Shown: positions 31,765-53,194 of the stretch, piece by piece
How the letters are laid out: each line of letters starts with the position of its first letter
How positions within the stretch are numbered: the stretch's first letter is position 1
The notes under the pieces: generated by a model
The model's input: the letters and a program-made list of their open reading frames with translations, nothing else
Told to the model about the DNA's origin: nothing
The model's database searches: none
Assembly (NCBI RefSeq): GCF_000317895.1
Contig: NC_019567.1
Location: forward strand, 3,782,001-3,846,000
Direction: 5' to 3'
Origin: Bdellovibrio bacteriovorus str. Tiberius
GTDB lineage: Bacteria; Bdellovibrionota; Bdellovibrionia; Bdellovibrionales; Bdellovibrionaceae
DNA length: 64,000 bases
Position numbers and translations under genes: made by a program

Positions 31765-31788
31765 TTGATTTGTCCTAAAGACAAAATG

Positions 31789-31816
31789 AAAGAGGAGCCC
31801 CGCAAGGCTCCTCTTT
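31789..31816. terminator. Bidirectional terminator between icd and the lipoprotein gene
   Basis: AAAGAGGAGCC and GGCTCCTCTTT form an 11-bp stem around CCGCAA with a T7 run following on the + strand. Confidence 0.9.
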
Positions 31817-31818
31817 TT

Positions 31819-34539
31819 TTATTTCTGCAGCGTCATTCGGCGCACCTGTCTTTGCACCTTTTCATCCACCGCCATCGGAGTGACTTCAAGATAAGCTTCA
31901 ACCAGCTTGTCCTGAAGAACCATCAGGCGTTTCATGTTATCGGTATATACGATCTCCCCACGTATGACTTCATCAGGGGATGGCAATCGGGTATCATAAA
32001 TCCCGCCTTTGTCCGGCCACGAAAGCACCAGATACTTTTCTTTGCCCTCTTCCTTTGTTTTAGGTTCTTTCACTTTGATTTTGCCAGCAAAGTCCAACCC
32101 CAAGGTCAGCTCCAGCGCCTGGGCATTTAAACCGGAAAGTGCCTTCTGATAGTGGGTTCTTAAACCCTCGACCGGAATACGCTGTCTGATCACGAAAGTA
32201 AGAAGGTTTTTGTTCAAAATTCTATTACGACGAACCGCGCATGCTAAGCTCTGATTGGGAGCATTGACTTCCGCGCATTCAGTCACTTCGCTCAAGGCAC
32301 CAAACTGATCCGCCAGGCCCAGCATCAAAGGTTCTCCAACCATCAGGCTTTCCTGAGCAATCGCGGACTGAACCAGTGACAGCGCATTTTCAAGCCAATA
32401 GTGGGACCTTGCCCAGCTGATGTTATAGCGCTCTTTCAGAGTGTTGGCGTCTTTTTCGGCCGCCAGCCAATCCGCTTTGTCATAAGAAAGAATCGGATGA
32501 AGCACCAGCAGATTTTCCACATAGCGCTCAAGCCCCTCTGTTGAAATCAGATTGATCAGGTCATACTGTTCAACACCATGAACGGCTCCCTCACCGCGAA
32601 CTGCATATTCAACTTTGCGTCTTAATGAATCCGCATTGACTGCCGGAAGATGCAAACCCGTGAACATCACAGAATATGGAATAATCTTGGTACTTTGAAG
32701 GGCCTCCACCAACGGCTGATAAACATCTTTATGGAAAGTCGCCAGCTCGTCATTGCGGAAATTTGCCACGAACTGAACCGGATTTTCATTGGCATTTTTA
32801 CTGCCAAAAGCTTTGGTCATGCTTCGCTGGCAAGTTTCATAGTTGGATTCACCAGAAGAACGGGCAAATCGCACCAGTGCTCCCTTTTCCTGCAAAGAGG
32901 CTTTCAGAAGCTGCCTTGTGGCTTCAAATGTACGAACACTACCCAGGCGATAAAGCTGGGACTGTTCTGCGTTCATGCTGACTCCGTATTGAATCATCTT
33001 TTCGCAAGAGTTGATTTCCGCGTGAGTAAGCAGTCTTTGTGCCTCAATATTCTGAACGATGACGGATTTGATCTCTTCAATCTTTCGCATCTCTATCTTG
33101 TGATAAGATTCAACAACGACTGCAAGTTCCCGGATCATTTTCATGGTTTCAAGCTGAATTTCGATCATCTGCTTTTGCAGTTGTTTGATTTCGGCAAGCT
33201 CACGACGGATGGCCTTTAGATCAGCCGCCATTTCCGCCTGCATCGCTGCACCGGAAACCGCCCCCATCAGTGCCGGCCCCGGACCACCGGCCATCATACC
33301 CATTGCACCAATCAATCCGCCAGAGGCATAAGCGCTCATCACCGACTGAGTCAGATTCACCACCGAGGCCACAGTGCGGGCTGTATCGATAGCCTGCTGA
33401 ACGCCCGGATCAATTTTAATTCCCAGAGTGACCGCTAATTTTTCAGTCGCATTCAATATCGTGTCCAGACGACCGGCCGCTGAAGCAGCGCTGTTTACAA
33501 AAGTTTCAATATTCTTATTGATGGCCTGTGGCTCACTCAATGGACCCTGGCCTTCTGCGGACTGCAGATTCCCGGTCAAAGCGTCGCTCATCAAACGCAA
33601 AGACTCCACACGGGTCTCATAGCGAAATTCAAGCTCCCATTTTCCTTTTTTGATTTCCTGAAGAATTGCTTCCATGGCGCCCTTGGCCGACTGCCAGTCT
33701 TCACCCATCTTCTGACGGCTGTCCTGGATCAGCTGAACCAGAGACGCGGCTTCACGCACCTTCGCGACCACATCGCCGACCTCACGGGCTTTCTTGATCA
33801 GCTCTTGGATGCTGGGTTGCTTTGCCAGATGATCCACCACGGCCCCGGCAACCAGTCCGATGACGATCAGCTTGGTATTGTCATCATTATGGAAATTGTA
33901 AGCGGCAAGAATTTTGTCGTAACGCTTCAGGATCTCAACTGTGTTTTCAATAGCTTCAGCACGAGGGCCCTTAACTGCAGCAGAAAGCTTTTTCTGATCT
34001 TCGGGACTTAGCTGCTGAATGTAGGCAGGCATCAGTTCAATTGCCACTTTCTGAGCTCTTTCAGAATAAGTTTTCAAAAGACTGTCCATAGCCTGATTCT
34101 GTTTTTGTATTTGCAGATTCAGATTGAAGTCATCACGAATACCCTTCGCACTAAAAGACATCTGGTTGTATCTGTAATTCAAAGTGAAATTCAGCACTGC
34201 TGGATCATTTCGGAATCCCAAAGTCTGCAACAGGTAAATGTTCTTGGCCATCTGACGGTCGCTTTCAAGCGCCGAAAGGACACTGTCGTCTACCGCAACA
34301 CGCTTCAAGTAAGCTGCGCGGTCCTGCTCTGACAGATAGGGAATCAGCAATCCCGCCAATGCAGGATTGGGACTGTTTCCTGCGGCGATCTGTTCCCAGA
34401 ATGGCAAGAACGAAGCGTCGCTAACATCACCCTGCGGTTTTTCTGTTCGGACGATTTCCCGAACCGTTTCTTTCTGAGGAGCACATGCCGACAAGGCCAG
34501 CACCGCACTTATTGTCATTGGAATGAATTTGTTTTTCAC
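31819..34539 (-). CDS. Large helical lipoprotein (906 aa) with Gly/Ala/Met-rich hydrophobic segment
   Basis: A 906-residue lipoprotein: lipobox LSAC with C19. It is nearly all helical. Residues 403-434 form a long hydrophobic stretch rich in Gly, Ala and Met, flanked by helices at about 340-400 and a strong coiled coil at 435-505. That helix/hydrophobic-hairpin/helix layout recalls helical pore-forming proteins, but I recognise no family. It begins with GTG in a 4-bp overlap (GTGA) with the end of the collagen-like lipoprotein gene, behind GGAGG, so the two are translated together and probably work together. Confidence 0.8.
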   Translation of the reverse strand: MKNKFIPMTISAVLALSACAPQKETVREIVRTEKPQGDVSDASFLPFWEQIAAGNSPNPALAGLLIPYLSEQDRAAYLKRVAVDDSVLSALESDRQMAKNIYLLQTLGFRNDPAVLNFTLNYRYNQMSFSAKGIRDDFNLNLQIQKQNQAMDSLLKTYSERAQKVAIELMPAYIQQLSPEDQKKLSAAVKGPRAEAIENTVEILKRYDKILAAYNFHNDDNTKLIVIGLVAGAVVDHLAKQPSIQELIKKAREVGDVVAKVREAASLVQLIQDSRQKMGEDWQSAKGAMEAILQEIKKGKWELEFRYETRVESLRLMSDALTGNLQSAEGQGPLSEPQAINKNIETFVNSAASAAGRLDTILNATEKLAVTLGIKIDPGVQQAIDTARTVASVVNLTQSVMSAYASGGLIGAMGMMAGGPGPALMGAVSGAAMQAEMAADLKAIRRELAEIKQLQKQMIEIQLETMKMIRELAVVVESYHKIEMRKIEEIKSVIVQNIEAQRLLTHAEINSCEKMIQYGVSMNAEQSQLYRLGSVRTFEATRQLLKASLQEKGALVRFARSSGESNYETCQRSMTKAFGSKNANENPVQFVANFRNDELATFHKDVYQPLVEALQSTKIIPYSVMFTGLHLPAVNADSLRRKVEYAVRGEGAVHGVEQYDLINLISTEGLERYVENLLVLHPILSYDKADWLAAEKDANTLKERYNISWARSHYWLENALSLVQSAIAQESLMVGEPLMLGLADQFGALSEVTECAEVNAPNQSLACAVRRNRILNKNLLTFVIRQRIPVEGLRTHYQKALSGLNAQALELTLGLDFAGKIKVKEPKTKEEGKEKYLVLSWPDKGGIYDTRLPSPDEVIRGEIVYTDNMKRLMVLQDKLVEAYLEVTPMAVDEKVQRQVRRMTLQK

Positions 34540-35759
34540 TTTACACCTCCAGAAAATTGATCGCGGGTGATGCAGGATGTCCCCTTATCGCCCATAGTAA
34601 GACAGAATTCACCCAAGGTACCCACACTTCCTTGTTGACCTTTAGAGCCGACGGCTCCGTTCGCACCATCTGCACCAGCCTTCGCTTTTCTGCAAAGAGG
34701 CGCAGAGGCTCCTGCCTGACCACCCAAACCTCCCGGCTGGCCTTTGCCGCCCTCACCACCCTCGCCTCCTTCACCAGGAACAAAGACGACTTCGTAGTCA
34801 AAGAACCTTGCTGATTGCAGCGTCAGATAAAGTGAACCGGAAGATCCCCCTTGGAAGCCATTGAAGCCGTCGGCACCGGCAACACCGTTTGTGCCGCGCT
34901 GACCGTCGGTGGGATGTTTGCTGCAACTTGGGCGTTCGCCGTCATAATCAGGTCCACGGGGAAAACCCGCGAAATATTCGCCCGCCGTGCCAGCGGCAGC
35001 TTGTGCCGGGCGCTCTTGAGTCGCATCAACACCTTTTTCACCACGAGAGCCACGATGCCCGCGCATTTGAATTTTTACGACGCCCGTGGCGTATTTCAGA
35101 TTCAGGATCAAACGACCACCGCCCTGACCTGGAACTTTAACTGTATTGGACAGTTCCAAATCCTTGTCACTGAATGTCTGGATGTGCGCGATGGATCCAC
35201 TGCGAAGTTCGGCGGCATCAATCTGCAGATCTCGGCCTTCAGTGATAAGCACAGCCCCTTCTTTAAGGACCAGAAAGCGAACTTCGATACGATTTGATTC
35301 GATTTTGAAATCAGAGATGCGAGCTGTCTCAGCAAGAACCCAGTCTTTTAAGACACGGACCTCTTTAACCAGTTGGCCGCGGTTAGTTTGAATGATGTAC
35401 TTATAGTGCCAAGGGCGCAGGTCGCTGCGAGGACTGTTCACGTGGTCCACGACATCGACACCGCTGACGGGAACATTCACAGAATAGCCGGTGATCACAT
35501 CCAGTCTTTCAACAGACTCGATACCGAAAGAGCTGTTGTCTTTGGTAATGCGAACGGTAATTGCAGATGGCTCTGAGTCGCGGTCCACAGACACGGTCAC
35601 TGAAGCCTCGGAAGAAGCCTTGGGACCCGAGACCTGATCATCAATGGGGTTTTCGTTTGGGACAACCTGCTTGGGGGCCGCTTGTTTGTCAGAGTCAGAA
35701 CCGGGCTGACAAGCGGCCAATGTGAGGACCAAGGGAAGGACGATAAAAAGTGTTTTCAT
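34536..35759 (-). CDS. Lipoprotein with collagen-like Gly-x-y repeats (407 aa)
   Basis: A 407-residue lipoprotein: lipobox LAAC with C17. Residues 45-230 look like beta-sandwich strands. From about 235 onward there are Gly-x-y tracts (GHRGSRGEKG, GQRGTNGVAGADGFNGFQG, GEGGEGGEGGKGQPGG, GADGANGAVGSKGQQG) interrupted by strand segments and paired cysteines. This is collagen-like sequence, usually a rod in surface proteins. It is the first gene of the pair with the 906-residue protein. Starts behind AGGAGAT at ATG 35759. Confidence 0.8.
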   Translation of the reverse strand: MKTLFIVLPLVLTLAACQPGSDSDKQAAPKQVVPNENPIDDQVSGPKASSEASVTVSVDRDSEPSAITVRITKDNSSFGIESVERLDVITGYSVNVPVSGVDVVDHVNSPRSDLRPWHYKYIIQTNRGQLVKEVRVLKDWVLAETARISDFKIESNRIEVRFLVLKEGAVLITEGRDLQIDAAELRSGSIAHIQTFSDKDLELSNTVKVPGQGGGRLILNLKYATGVVKIQMRGHRGSRGEKGVDATQERPAQAAAGTAGEYFAGFPRGPDYDGERPSCSKHPTDGQRGTNGVAGADGFNGFQGGSSGSLYLTLQSARFFDYEVVFVPGEGGEGGEGGKGQPGGLGGQAGASAPLCRKAKAGADGANGAVGSKGQQGSVGTLGEFCLTMGDKGTSCITRDQFSGGVK

Positions 35760-35905
35760 GGTATCTCCTATTTTCGGAAGAAGGAGATATCAAGAGCCGC
35801 GCCAAGCGCAGAAACCCGTCAGATCAAATAAACACGCCGAAGACAGGCCCCGGCGTCCGGTCCGTCCCTGAATCTGGACGGACAATCTTGGATATTAGAT
35901 TAAAA

Positions 35906-36821: not shown

Positions 36822-39800
36822 TTATGGAGTGGAGGCATCCAGCGGGCCTGAAGCCCCGATGATGTAGAATTTCACCTGCTGGTTGTCGTCAAATACTTTC
36901 AATAACAAAGAATTTGTTCGAGGGATATGAGCATTGCCAAAGGGATGCATGGACTCCTTATCCCATAGAGGCGCCTGCAACATGCCATCAAGACTTGGCT
37001 GCTGTTCAGCCTGTGTCGGAAGCATCACTTCTGTGAAGTGCCCGCCGTCCAGATCTCGATACAAAATTCCAGCCAGCAGATTAGTGGCATCAACGAATCC
37101 GGCATTGATGACTTTCGTCCCCGCACAAAGATAGCCGTACACAAAATTTAAAGTATAAGGAGGGTAGATTTGCAGAATATTATTTTGAATATCAGAAAAA
37201 TTCACCGGACTGACTGCAGAGCCGTAAACGGCTGAGAAGTCCACAAAGCTCAGATCTTTTTTAACCTCTGAGAGCTGTCCCCCACGAATAACCAGCAGGC
37301 CACGGGAAGAAGCCTTAAGATTTATCAAATAGTCCTGATATTCGGAATAAGTGATGCCATCGGACTGAATGGCCCCGATTCGGAATCGTCCCTGATCGGG
37401 ACCACTGGTTGCCTGGGAAATAAAATAGATCCCGGAAGCTCCCTGAAGAACTTCGTGAATCTTTTCGTCTGAAATCTTGCTCATCGGGCCTTCCAGCTTC
37501 CAAAGATTCCACGACCAAGTCATATAATCCCAAGTCGTAGAGGTGGATATCGGGAACAACATGTATTTGTCACCATTCAGGCTATAAACGCGGGTGACAA
37601 ACGGAGAATCACGTTGCTCACCCACCTGCACTTCTGCAGAGACTTTCTCAAGTGTCGGCACAATAGCGGTTGTATCTACCTTCCAAAGATACACTTTCAT
37701 ATCAACATCCAAACCGCGGAAGTAAACCGTGTTCCCGACCCAACGGAAGCTGCCGGCGTTCTGTAAGTTCGATGCCACAAGCGTGGTTGTCCCAGCTCGG
37801 CGCAGATAAAGGTTTTTCAACGACATTGAACTGATGTGATAAAGAAACTTGTCCTCTCGGACTGTTCCCATCACACCCGAATCCTCGTTATTCAGCACGG
37901 TGGCGGTTCCACCAGAAAGCATAATCGGTCGATCGGTGAACATACCGCCAAGTCTTGAGGGTGAACGCCCGGTGAAAATAAAATCCTGAGTTCCAGTCAG
38001 TGCCGCGCCAATACCGCTGAACATATAACCCCGAACACTGTCTCCGACCAAGCCCCATTCACGCTTCAGCAGCGGTTCAAACTGACTGCCATTATAGGAT
38101 ATCAACTGCACGGCAAATGAAGAGGTGCCTGGATGTTCCCACAGCCCCCCGGCGATTCTGACATGAAGATGGGCCGATGTCGCAATAAGGATTCGAGAAT
38201 TACGAACCTCGATAATACGTGTGGAGCTTTCATTAAAGAATGCTCCGGGAATCTGGATGTATTTCAAGTTTCCGTTGTTATATTCAACCAAGTAAGGCTT
38301 TGCGAGGCTGGCCGTATGAATGTAGATGTCTGAGCCCTCTTTGTTCACATCCAAAGTGCGACGTACCGTGCGCGAAGGCATATTATAGTCGCCTTCAAAG
38401 ATATAATCATCGGATGAGACACCACTGATAGCAGAGGTTCCACCGTCTGTACCGTCACTTCGATACAATTGAACTTTGCCGTCAGTACCCACACCAAGGA
38501 AGAACATTTCTCCTCCGCTTTCACGGATCGAGTGCGGCTGAAAGACATTGATTCCAGGATCATCGACAGCCAATGTGCTGGCGTTGATTCTTTTCAGAGA
38601 GGTCAGGCCTGTCACCTGATCAAACACCGGCAGGAAATAGTTATTGTTCACATAAGCATGCTGAACCCAGTCCAGACGCTGAATTTTGCCGGCAATATTA
38701 CCACCGTACTCACGATCAATGAACGTGTCCACCAAAGTGCCCTTGGTAGTGGGTCCCGTAATGTTATAAAGATAGCGACCGCCATCAGTGCTTGAGATCA
38801 GCGCGGCATTCTGACCGGCAAGCACACTGGCATTTCCAATACTGGAAAGATTCGCCTCAAGTGTCGCAGTCTGAGTGGCCATGTTCACTTTCACGATACG
38901 TCCGTCCGTGAAACATGTGGTGGGTGGGCAATAAAAGAAGGTGCTGCCATTGATGCTCTGCACGTCGGCACCAAACTCAGGCCAGGGATCAAAATCGAAA
39001 CCCAGACTTGTCACCGCATTATTAGTGGATGTTGCCACTTTGACGATTTGATGAGTTGCAATCCCACTCGGGTTCACATTGGCACGGAAGTAAAGGTCCC
39101 CATTGTAACTGATCGCCCCTGATAAAAGACGGGTCACGGACCCATCCACCGTCGGCGCCTGAACAACACCGGCAATGACCTGACGAAGAGATCCTGAACT
39201 GTCGACGATATAGGATTTTCCCGAAGCGTTGTATATTCTAAGAGCCGTCTGCCCCGTGTCCACGCAGTTTGCACCGTCCACATAGTAGAGTCGGCCATTC
39301 TGGGCATTCAGCGGCGCCACGCCGGAGTTCATAACAAAGTAGGCCCCTTGATTGCCATCCGGATAAATGCGGAATTCAAGTTTGTTTTGCACGTCGATAT
39401 TCATTCCAGCACATTGCAAAGTATCCAGACTGAACGTGCTTTTATTAATCGAACGGATATAAGAACGCACTGTGCCCGCCGAAATCTCTTCGTCGGTCAT
39501 AATCAGAACGTGAGTGGGAGTGGAGGCCAGATGATAGTGACTGATAACATTCAACCCCAAAGCCAGCTCACTTTTCATTGCACCAGAAATCTTCACAACT
39601 TTACGTCGCATATTATCTGTGCTTGACGGCTGAATGAAATAATAGCGTTCAGGAGAAATGCTGCCAAAGTGGCCAGTGATTTTACTTAAACTGGAAGGAA
39701 GATTTTGCTGAATGAATCCCGCATCGATAGATCCAAGTGGTACCGGCGTTGTGGGAATAGAAGTCCCCGGAGCTGGCTCCGTCACTGAGAATGGCATTTC

Positions 39801-39872
39801 GGTAAGGGTCGCATCCAACGAGCACCCCGCCAAAATCCAGGCAGTAAGAACTATCAAGACATTCAAAAACAT
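36822..39872 (-). CDS. Very large lipoprotein, probable beta-propeller (1016 aa)
   Basis: A 1016-residue lipoprotein: signal peptide ending LAGC with C17. The rest is beta-rich with many repeats of the type Y-x-V-D/N-G and short loops, including FRxVGNTVYFRG-type and NGDKY-type strands, typical of proteins displaying WD/kelch-like propellers. No catalytic motif stands out. It is monocistronic. It may be a surface binding protein; that is inferred from architecture only. Starts behind AAGGTG at ATG 39872. Confidence 0.75.
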   Translation of the reverse strand: MFLNVLIVLTAWILAGCSLDATLTEMPFSVTEPAPGTSIPTTPVPLGSIDAGFIQQNLPSSLSKITGHFGSISPERYYFIQPSSTDNMRRKVVKISGAMKSELALGLNVISHYHLASTPTHVLIMTDEEISAGTVRSYIRSINKSTFSLDTLQCAGMNIDVQNKLEFRIYPDGNQGAYFVMNSGVAPLNAQNGRLYYVDGANCVDTGQTALRIYNASGKSYIVDSSGSLRQVIAGVVQAPTVDGSVTRLLSGAISYNGDLYFRANVNPSGIATHQIVKVATSTNNAVTSLGFDFDPWPEFGADVQSINGSTFFYCPPTTCFTDGRIVKVNMATQTATLEANLSSIGNASVLAGQNAALISSTDGGRYLYNITGPTTKGTLVDTFIDREYGGNIAGKIQRLDWVQHAYVNNNYFLPVFDQVTGLTSLKRINASTLAVDDPGINVFQPHSIRESGGEMFFLGVGTDGKVQLYRSDGTDGGTSAISGVSSDDYIFEGDYNMPSRTVRRTLDVNKEGSDIYIHTASLAKPYLVEYNNGNLKYIQIPGAFFNESSTRIIEVRNSRILIATSAHLHVRIAGGLWEHPGTSSFAVQLISYNGSQFEPLLKREWGLVGDSVRGYMFSGIGAALTGTQDFIFTGRSPSRLGGMFTDRPIMLSGGTATVLNNEDSGVMGTVREDKFLYHISSMSLKNLYLRRAGTTTLVASNLQNAGSFRWVGNTVYFRGLDVDMKVYLWKVDTTAIVPTLEKVSAEVQVGEQRDSPFVTRVYSLNGDKYMLFPISTSTTWDYMTWSWNLWKLEGPMSKISDEKIHEVLQGASGIYFISQATSGPDQGRFRIGAIQSDGITYSEYQDYLINLKASSRGLLVIRGGQLSEVKKDLSFVDFSAVYGSAVSPVNFSDIQNNILQIYPPYTLNFVYGYLCAGTKVINAGFVDATNLLAGILYRDLDGGHFTEVMLPTQAEQQPSLDGMLQAPLWDKESMHPFGNAHIPRTNSLLLKVFDDNQQVKFYIIGASGPLDASTP

Positions 39873-52090: not shown

Positions 52091-53194
52091 TTAGTGCTCG
52101 AAATGAACTCGAGCCGCTTTATTCATGTAATATCCGTTTTTGGCTCTAAAGATATATTTAGGTTTTTCGTAATCCGGTTCAATCAGTTTACGCAGACGTT
52201 TGATGGTCACGTAAATCTTATTGTCGTGGATGGCAGGATCATAAGGCTGCTTCCATACATTCTCAACCAGGAATTCTTTGGAATAAATCTGACCCTGGTT
52301 CTGAACGAACAGGCGCAGAAGATCCAATAATATAAACTGGTTTTTGAAATCAATGCGGCCCAGTTTCTTTTCGATCACAGAGTGATTTGCCTCATCAAAG
52401 ATAAGGTCGAAATTGCTCTGAGTTTCGCCACCGATTTTTTCGGCAAGGTTTTTCACCATGCGCGCCAGACGTTTGTGGTTTTCAGTGTCCACAGATCTTT
52501 GCGCCAAAGTGATGTAAGTGCGGGCCATGTCCTTGTCGCCGATTTCGAAATACGTGTCCGCCAGGGCGCCCATCAGATAGTTGGACATAACCACGTTGCG
52601 GGTTTCACGAACGATATCGTAGGCCTTCCACAGAACCTCGATCGCCTCGTCGTATTTTTTCATCTGCTTCAGGATATCCGCATTCAGGAAAAGAGAAGAC
52701 GCCTGAAGATCCGGCATCTGATAAACCTGGAAGAAGACCTGAAGATTGTAGATCTCTTTCAACGCATCAGAATAGCGAGCCGAAGACGGATGAGAGTACA
52801 CCATCGCAAGACCGAAGATGGCGTGACAGATGTCTTCCTTGTTGTCAGAAGCAAGTGCGATAGCCAGGGCCTTTTGGAGATAGTCCATGGCTGTGTCGAT
52901 TTGACCCTTGTAAGACGCGCACACCGCGAGCGTGTAGTACGTCTTGGAATTCAGTTCGAAGCCCTCTTTCAGAACCAAATCCTGCAGTTTTTCTTTTGTC
53001 AGATTTACTTCTTCAAATTGCTCACGCTCTGCAAAGATACGCAGAAGCAAATTGATGCACTTCAAGTATTGAGAGAAATTCTTCTCGGCAAAGAAAGCTT
53101 TCGTCGCTTCCTGAAGATTGTCCACGGCAGGCGTGAACTCTCCCCGGTCGTAGTAAAGCTTGCCGAGCTCGAAAGCACGATCAGTAGGGCTCAT
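52091..53194 (-). CDS. TPR protein with C-terminal OmpR-type winged helix
   Basis: A 367-residue cytosolic protein. Residues 1-260 are tetratricopeptide-like helical repeats (AFELGKLYYDRGEFTPAVDNL, YTLAVCASYKGQIDTAMDYLQKAL). The last 100 residues are an OmpR/PhoB-type DNA-binding domain (LVENVWKQPYDP, NKIYVTIKRLRKLIEP, YIFRAKNGYYM). It is a regulator without a receiver domain, so the TPR part likely senses a peptide or partner. It is followed at 9 bp by a secreted-protein gene, an obvious candidate target. Confidence 0.88.
   Translation of the reverse strand: MSPTDRAFELGKLYYDRGEFTPAVDNLQEATKAFFAEKNFSQYLKCINLLLRIFAEREQFEEVNLTKEKLQDLVLKEGFELNSKTYYTLAVCASYKGQIDTAMDYLQKALAIALASDNKEDICHAIFGLAMVYSHPSSARYSDALKEIYNLQVFFQVYQMPDLQASSLFLNADILKQMKKYDEAIEVLWKAYDIVRETRNVVMSNYLMGALADTYFEIGDKDMARTYITLAQRSVDTENHKRLARMVKNLAEKIGGETQSNFDLIFDEANHSVIEKKLGRIDFKNQFILLDLLRLFVQNQGQIYSKEFLVENVWKQPYDPAIHDNKIYVTIKRLRKLIEPDYEKPKYIFRAKNGYYMNKAARVHFEH

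What the first reader, a model, noticed from the sequence alone, without database searches (positions are those of the whole stretch)
31819..35759. Translationally coupled lipoprotein pair: collagen-like rod plus large helical protein
A 407-residue lipoprotein with Gly-x-y tracts overlaps (GTGA) a 906-residue helical lipoprotein with a 30-residue Gly/Ala/Met-rich hydrophobic segment (403-434) flanked by helices and a coiled coil. This outline resembles helical pore-formers or membrane-inserting toxins displayed on a rod. No known family is evident. It is the best candidate in the window for an undescribed envelope or prey-interaction device.
Basis: partly seen in the sequence, partly recalled or inferred. 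Interest (0 to 1): 0.75.

Follow-up and report, generated by a model that had tools for sequence, protein, structure and literature searches.

The report
Swappable two-lipoprotein module of predatory bacteria
Two envelope lipoproteins made by predatory Bdellovibrio-type bacteria, one predicted to be folded like a phage tail-tip recognition protein and one a very large helical protein of no known family, are inherited and swapped as a unit, which makes them good but untested candidates for a device by which the predator recognises or acts on other cells.

Summary
In detail: two overlapping lipoprotein genes (407 and 906 codons, GTGA overlap), no curated family, and a 47-residue charge-free Gly/Ala/Met-rich segment in the larger protein. 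The interpretation changes in two ways. (1) The smaller protein is probably not a collagen rod: its model is a beta domain plus a packed glycine-rich domain that aligns with snow flea antifreeze protein and phage gp38 tips (weak Z scores). (2) The pair is a conserved two-gene module: 19 intact, tightly spaced pairs in Bdellovibrio and Bacteriovoracaceae. It is patchy (9 of 24 genus genomes carry a full-length large protein), sits at different sites, is missing in one genome that keeps the same flanking genes, and occurs three times in another. Against an HD100-like genome it is an allelic island: identity drops from 93-99% to 55-80% at its borders and dS is 1.8-3.1 against a neighbour median of 0.21, yet dN/dS is only 0.12-0.14. 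Distant relatives of the large protein have other upstream partners, including phage tail-collar-type lipoproteins in two genomes. Best reading: a recognition lipoprotein coupled to a helical, possibly membrane-inserting lipoprotein. Recognition, surface exposure and pore formation are untested.

The parts
31819..34539 (-). 906-aa helical lipoprotein (GTG start); long helices, hydrophobic segment, conserved C-terminal domain; invariant cysteines C512, C570, C755, C767
34483..34485 (-). lipobox cysteine Cys19 of the 906-aa protein
   Evidence: sequence; invariant column
33235..33375 (-). 47-residue charge-free Gly/Ala/Met-rich segment (residues 389-435); contains the lowest-confidence part of the model
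33025..33210 (-). long helix / coiled coil, residues 444-505, hydrophobic period 3.53
31870..32922 (-). C-terminal domain (about residues 540-890), the part best shared by the most distant relatives
34536..34539 (-). GTGA overlap of stop and start codons
   Evidence: overlap of 4 or 1 nt in 8 of 19 pairs, gap of 8 to 23 nt in the rest
34536..35759 (-). 407-aa lipoprotein with beta domain followed by glycine-rich domain predicted as a polyglycine-II bundle; presumed recognition subunit
35709..35711 (-). lipobox cysteine Cys17 of the 407-aa protein
   Evidence: sequence; invariant
35025..35417 (-). beta-rich domain, about residues 115-245
   Evidence: mostly pLDDT 70-95
34605..34919 (-). glycine-rich domain, residues 281-385, mostly pLDDT 82-95, with many invariant Gly and Cys356 (Cys279 just before it)
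35762..35789 (-). hairpin TATCTCCT...AGGAGATA that contains the Shine-Dalgarno sequence of the 407-aa gene; present in three strains
35834..35856 (-). terminator-like hairpin between the upstream M15-like lipoprotein gene and the pair
31788..31817 (.). bidirectional terminator-like hairpin between the pair and icd

Best explanation
The two genes form a stand-alone two-gene operon that makes a two-part envelope device. Step 1 (shown by sequence): both products carry lipoprotein signals; conserved cysteines besides the lipobox suggest disulphides. Step 2 (inferred from the model and from partner swapping): the 407-aa protein is a recognition subunit, a beta domain carrying a polyglycine-II bundle with loops, the layout of the gp38 receptor-binding tips of T2-type phages. 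Step 3 (inferred): it binds a variable surface feature of another cell and is complexed with the 906-aa protein, which is made next to it by coupled translation. Step 4 (inferred, weakest): the 906-aa protein, long helices around a flexible charge-free hydrophobic hairpin, anchors to or inserts into the contacted membrane. Step 5 (shown): the module is kept or lost as a unit, found at several chromosomal sites, and its alleles at one site differ as a block, as expected for a surface system under selection from changing targets such as prey, phage or rivals.
For: Conserved adjacency, order and tight spacing in 19 intact pairs, Mantel r 0.93 with 0 of 5000 permutations as high. Lipobox Cys and further cysteines invariant. 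Partner model aligns with snow flea antifreeze protein (2.1 A over 66 of 81 residues, 33% identity, Z 3.3-3.6), phage gp38 tips 9v85 (Z 5.3) and 6f45 (Z 4.2) and beta-helix 4kh3 (Z 7.3); PP01 gp38 is described as beta-helix, PGII sandwich and recognition loops (PMC12892980). In two distant relatives the upstream partner is a lipoprotein with a phage tail-collar-fibre domain (phrog_523, E 3e-15 and 4e-17); in another (G337) a PGII lipoprotein is kept with a very divergent helical protein. Allelic island with sharp borders and dS 1.8-3.1 against neighbour median 0.21, dN/dS 0.12-0.14 against the same genome. Flanking genes adjacent without the pair in G015; three pairs in G017. Long helices around a charge-free hairpin.
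Against: No experiment. The model of the 906-aa protein is only moderately confident (mean pLDDT 58) and has no significant structural match. VIA Z scores of the partner are below 8, where a common arrangement may explain them. The hydrophobic segment is weakly hydrophobic for a transmembrane helix. Surface exposure, as against facing the periplasm, is not shown. Many PGII lipoproteins stand alone without a helical partner in the same genomes, so PGII alone does not imply this device. Patchy presence argues against an essential role in predation. Correlated distances of two adjacent genes are expected from linkage alone.
Confidence: 0.38

Rival explanations
1. The pair is a surface antigen complex whose allele swapping is driven by phages or protists that attack Bdellovibrio; its job is structural or protective, and it does nothing to prey.
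For: Allelic island with high dS and purifying selection and frequent absence fit escape from phage as well as prey adaptation.
Against: Does not explain why other upstream partners include phage receptor-binding folds or the conserved hydrophobic hairpin.
Confidence: 0.25
2. The pair is a periplasmic envelope-maintenance or cell-wall-linked complex; the helical protein spans the periplasm and the glycine protein packs against peptidoglycan or the outer-membrane inner leaflet.
For: Lipoproteins often stay on the inner leaflet of the outer membrane (general knowledge); long coiled coils and cysteine pairs; the gene upstream is an M15-like lipoprotein, M15 called by eye.
Against: Housekeeping envelope genes are not usually hypervariable allelic islands absent from more than half of the genus.
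Confidence: 0.2
3. The pair mediates recognition or inhibition among Bdellovibrio themselves (kin discrimination), the alleles defining compatibility groups.
For: Deeply diverged alleles at one site in related strains under purifying selection; three pairs in one genome.
Against: No immunity-like third gene is conserved next to the pair.
Confidence: 0.1
4. One reading: a collagen-like rod displaying a helical pore-forming toxin.
For: Gly-x-y tracts; hydrophobic segment between long helices.
Against: Collagen profile below cut-off; tracts interrupted; confident glycine-domain model with polyglycine-II matches instead; no pore-former match.
Confidence: 0.07

Closest known systems
Phage gp38 receptor-binding tips (S16, PP01)
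   Same: Beta domain then glycine-rich polyglycine-II domain with variable loops (PMC12892980)
   Different: Cellular lipoprotein, no sequence match, Z only 4.2-5.3; paired with a helical protein instead of a tail fibre
Phage tail-collar fibre proteins (phrog_523)
   Same: Occupy the same upstream partner slot in two distant relatives
   Different: The window's own partner is not of this family
Snow flea / springtail antifreeze proteins (polyproline/polyglycine-II bundles)
   Same: Aligned glycine helices, 2.1 A over 66 residues, 33% identity
   Different: Not lipoproteins, no partner; probably shared geometry only
ClyA-like alpha-pore-forming toxins, including two-component YaxAB/XaxAB
   Same: Helices around a hydrophobic element; two gene products (general scheme, PMC6162564)
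   Different: No sequence or fold match found; partner is beta/PGII, not helical; longer; lipoprotein
Mosaic adhesive trimer (MAT) fibres of Bdellovibrio
   Same: Predator surface proteins that borrow phage-fibre folds (PMC10769870)
   Different: MATs are trimeric fibres, some ending in an S74 motif; the main text of that paper mentions no collagen, lipoprotein or Bd37xx protein

Membership tests
Collagen (PF01391) | profile score above gathering cut-off | tested here: not met
   13.1 bits against cut-off 27.2, E 0.086
Collagen (PF01391) | long uninterrupted Gly-x-y, Pro-rich | tested here: not met
   longest run 8 triplets; 8 Pro in residues 233-385
Streptococcal collagen-like adhesins Scl1/Scl2 (NCBIfam) | curated cut-off and LPXTG anchor | tested here: not met
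   14 bits against 325-400; lipobox instead of LPXTG
Phage gp38 PGII adhesins | beta-helix domain followed by PGII sandwich | tested here: inconclusive
   AF2 model confident in the Gly domain; VIA Z 5.3 (9v85) and 4.2 (6f45), below 8
Phage gp38 PGII adhesins | sequence homology to phage families | tested here: not met
   no PHROG match at E 0.1
Phage gp38 PGII adhesins | binds an outer-membrane receptor | not testable with these tools
   needs a binding assay
ClyA-like alpha-pore-forming toxins | sequence homology | tested here: not met
   no significant PDB match by phmmer or profile
ClyA-like alpha-pore-forming toxins | fold | tested here: inconclusive
   model pLDDT 58, no clear match
ClyA-like alpha-pore-forming toxins | hydrophobic element between long helices | tested here: met
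   helices 378-416 and 444-505 around charge-free 389-435
ClyA-like alpha-pore-forming toxins | pore formation | not testable with these tools
   needs a liposome assay
Bdellovibrio MAT fibres | trimeric fibre with mosaic domains | not tested
   no MAT sequence or model was compared

The most novel reading that the evidence does not exclude
A family of predator-phylum surface machines in which an exchangeable phage-tail-tip-like recognition lipoprotein is paired with a large helical membrane-inserting lipoprotein, spread and re-tuned by swapping whole two-gene alleles.
Probability: 0.3. Interest if true: 0.85.

Novelty: new variant of a known kind. Interest (0 to 1): 0.62.

Why it matters
How Bdellovibrio-type predators recognise different prey is open. 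This module is a small, deletable, allele-swapped locus with a predicted recognition subunit and an uncharacterised large partner, so its role in attachment, prey range, competition or phage sensitivity can be tested directly in laboratory strains. It also adds a further possible case of phage tail-tip folds used by bacterial predators, and a helical protein family that the curated libraries searched here do not hold.

Tried and rejected
Collagen rod: rejected on profile and model. Toxin-family homology: nothing significant; weak profile matches to coiled coils of viral fusion proteins and designed bundles (E 0.02 and worse) are taken as coiled-coil composition. Pfam ANAPC4, NCBIfam PRK13783 and PHROG holin hits are weak (E 0.008-0.06), below the curated cut-offs where a cut-off exists, and set aside. 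Fold search of the helical model: no match well above the others; ClyA-type chains did not appear among the listed rows, which excludes nothing. A single-sequence scan of genome contigs found nothing; the alignment scan worked. Viral contigs and plasmids: no relatives. Four distant profile hits to proteins of about 605-609 residues (G184, G185, G149, G204) look secretin-like by eye and were discarded. The HD100 locus number and published expression data could not be found. Other phyla could be checked only through the one-motif scan.
Full report
OBSERVATION. The genome (G000, 3,988,594 bases, one contig) has the two genes exactly as described: 407 and 906 codons on the minus strand with a GTGA overlap. 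Terminator-like hairpins lie between icd and the pair (31788-31817) and between the upstream M15-like lipoprotein gene and the pair (35834-35856), so the pair looks like its own operon (the scan found 12 such hairpins against 9.8 expected, so each alone is weak). The Shine-Dalgarno sequence of the first gene sits in a hairpin (TATCTCCT...AGGAGATA) whose arms are present in three strains although the leader around them varies (folding z only -1.2 to -1.8).

FAMILY. Neither protein has a curated match: Pfam, NCBIfam and the PDB by sequence give nothing above a cut-off, PADLOC gives nothing, and PHROGs gives only a holin hit at E 0.038. Relatives of the 906-aa protein were found by profile in 11 of 24 genus genomes: nine hold a full-length member (G000, G003, G005, G007, G012, G015, G016, G017, G023), while G002 and G006 hold only a distant type. 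In the phylum 33 of 369 genomes matched the first profile and 43 of 369 a profile that includes distant members; the weakest hits of the second search are false. A motif scan of genome contigs (84,980 species) returned relatives only from records labelled Bdellovibrio, Bacteriovorax stolpii, Bacteriovoracaceae and one labelled Proteobacteria. That scan used a single peptide motif and so misses members; no other phylum was searched directly. Viral contigs and plasmids gave none.

THE PAIR IS A UNIT. The glycine-rich lipoprotein lies directly upstream of the helical one in nearly all loci of the close family. In 19 intact pairs the spacing runs from a 4-nt overlap to a 23-nt gap, and pairwise distances of the two proteins correlate with r 0.93 (0 of 5000 permutations as high); linkage alone would also give correlated distances. 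G012 has a transposase gene pair inside its glycine gene. The flanking genes differ between loci. In G015 the M15-like gene and icd are direct neighbours without the pair, while G015's own, diverged pair lies elsewhere; G017 has three pairs at three places. I cannot say whether the empty site is ancestral or a loss.

ALLELIC ISLAND. Against the HD100-like genome, nucleotide identity is 93-99% through icd, falls to 55-80% from about 31857 to 35757, and rises to 83-92% beyond. The two proteins are 66% and 56% identical, third-lowest and lowest of 47 window ORF products compared (median 97.5%). dS is 1.8 and 3.1, against a median of 0.21 and a maximum of 1.41 for the other genes, while dN/dS is 0.12-0.14. 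Such dS values are near saturation and only say 'very high'. Against G023 the divergence is milder (dS 0.75 and 0.92 against a median of 0.30), and a stretch of the glycine gene near 34707-34857 is 97% identical, which suggests recombination within the gene. Block replacement by recombination is the simplest reading; some neighbours, such as 29710 and 40638, are also divergent.

STRUCTURE. The 407-aa model has mean pLDDT 66.7: residues 1-109 are unreliable, but a beta domain (about 115-245) and the glycine-rich region (about 291-350 and 361-390) are mostly at 70-95. Foldseek finds nothing significant; its first hits are snow flea and springtail antifreeze proteins, E 1 and worse. VIA-align, a second look at the same candidates, gives 4kh3 (Z 7.3), gp38 of PP01 (9v85, Z 5.3, 4.1 A over 120), gp38 of S16 (6f45, Z 4.2, 3.6 A over 114) and snow flea antifreeze protein (Z 3.3-3.6, 2.1 A over 66 of 81, 33% identity). 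These Z scores are in the range that may mean a common arrangement only. [quoted passage not shown] The 906-aa model has mean pLDDT 58.4: very long helices (135-176, 242-306, 337-372, 378-416, 444-505), least confident at the hydrophobic hairpin, more confident in the C-terminal domain; no significant match in the PDB. Cysteines 512, 570, 755 and 767 are invariant in the first alignment, which suggests disulphides.

PARTNER SWAPPING. Distant relatives share mainly the coiled-coil and C-terminal part. Their upstream neighbours differ: small exported proteins, several with what looks like a coiled coil, and in G153 and G272 a lipoprotein with a phage tail-collar-fibre domain (phrog_523, E 3.1e-15 and 4e-17). 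In G337 a PGII lipoprotein (A2 profile E 2.9e-46) precedes a very divergent helical protein. PGII-type lipoproteins occur in all 24 genus genomes, many without a helical partner. In G000 two of them, in tandem, sit in the place where G002 and G006 carry the distant helical protein. Two of the partner types thus resemble phage receptor-binding tips, which is the main reason to call the partner a recognition subunit; this is inference.

MECHANISM. Shown: the coding pair, lipoprotein signals, conserved pairing, purifying selection, allelic island, patchy distribution. Inferred: surface exposure, recognition by the 407-aa protein, complex formation, membrane insertion by the 906-aa protein. I put 0.38 on the whole chain, and less on membrane insertion being shown true in detail. 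The main rivals are a phage-driven surface antigen (0.25), a periplasmic structural complex (0.2) and kin discrimination (0.1).

The finding is right about the genes and the lack of a known family, in all likelihood wrong about the collagen rod, and untested about the toxin. Which of the phylum's genomes are predators is not known from the tools.

Noticed in passing
35762-35789: Shine-Dalgarno of the 407-aa gene inside a hairpin conserved in three strains; possible translational control.
   Followed up: partly
L077 7077-9529 (G000:C1 about 81076-83528): Tandem orphan PGII lipoprotein genes occupy the site where G002 and G006 carry a distant helical-lipoprotein relative.
   Followed up: partly
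L129 2463-2996 and L164 2734-3306: Lipoproteins with a phage tail-collar-fibre domain directly upstream of distant helical relatives.
   Followed up: partly
34707-34857: 97% identical stretch to G023 inside an otherwise 65-81% identical gene, suggesting recombination within the gene.
   Followed up: no
36822-39872: 1016-aa lipoprotein-like gene absent from the same place in the HD100-like and G023 genomes; a relative lies at that place in G015.
   Followed up: no
52091-53194: 367-aa TPR-like protein, probably Bd3743 of PMC12034629 by length and domain (inference).
   Followed up: no
L085 5262-6466 (G012): Transposase gene pair inserted in the glycine-rich partner gene, leaving a C-terminal remnant while the helical gene stays open.
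   Followed up: no
L080, L083: Papain-like exported proteins (by eye) beside the distant helical relatives.
   Followed up: no
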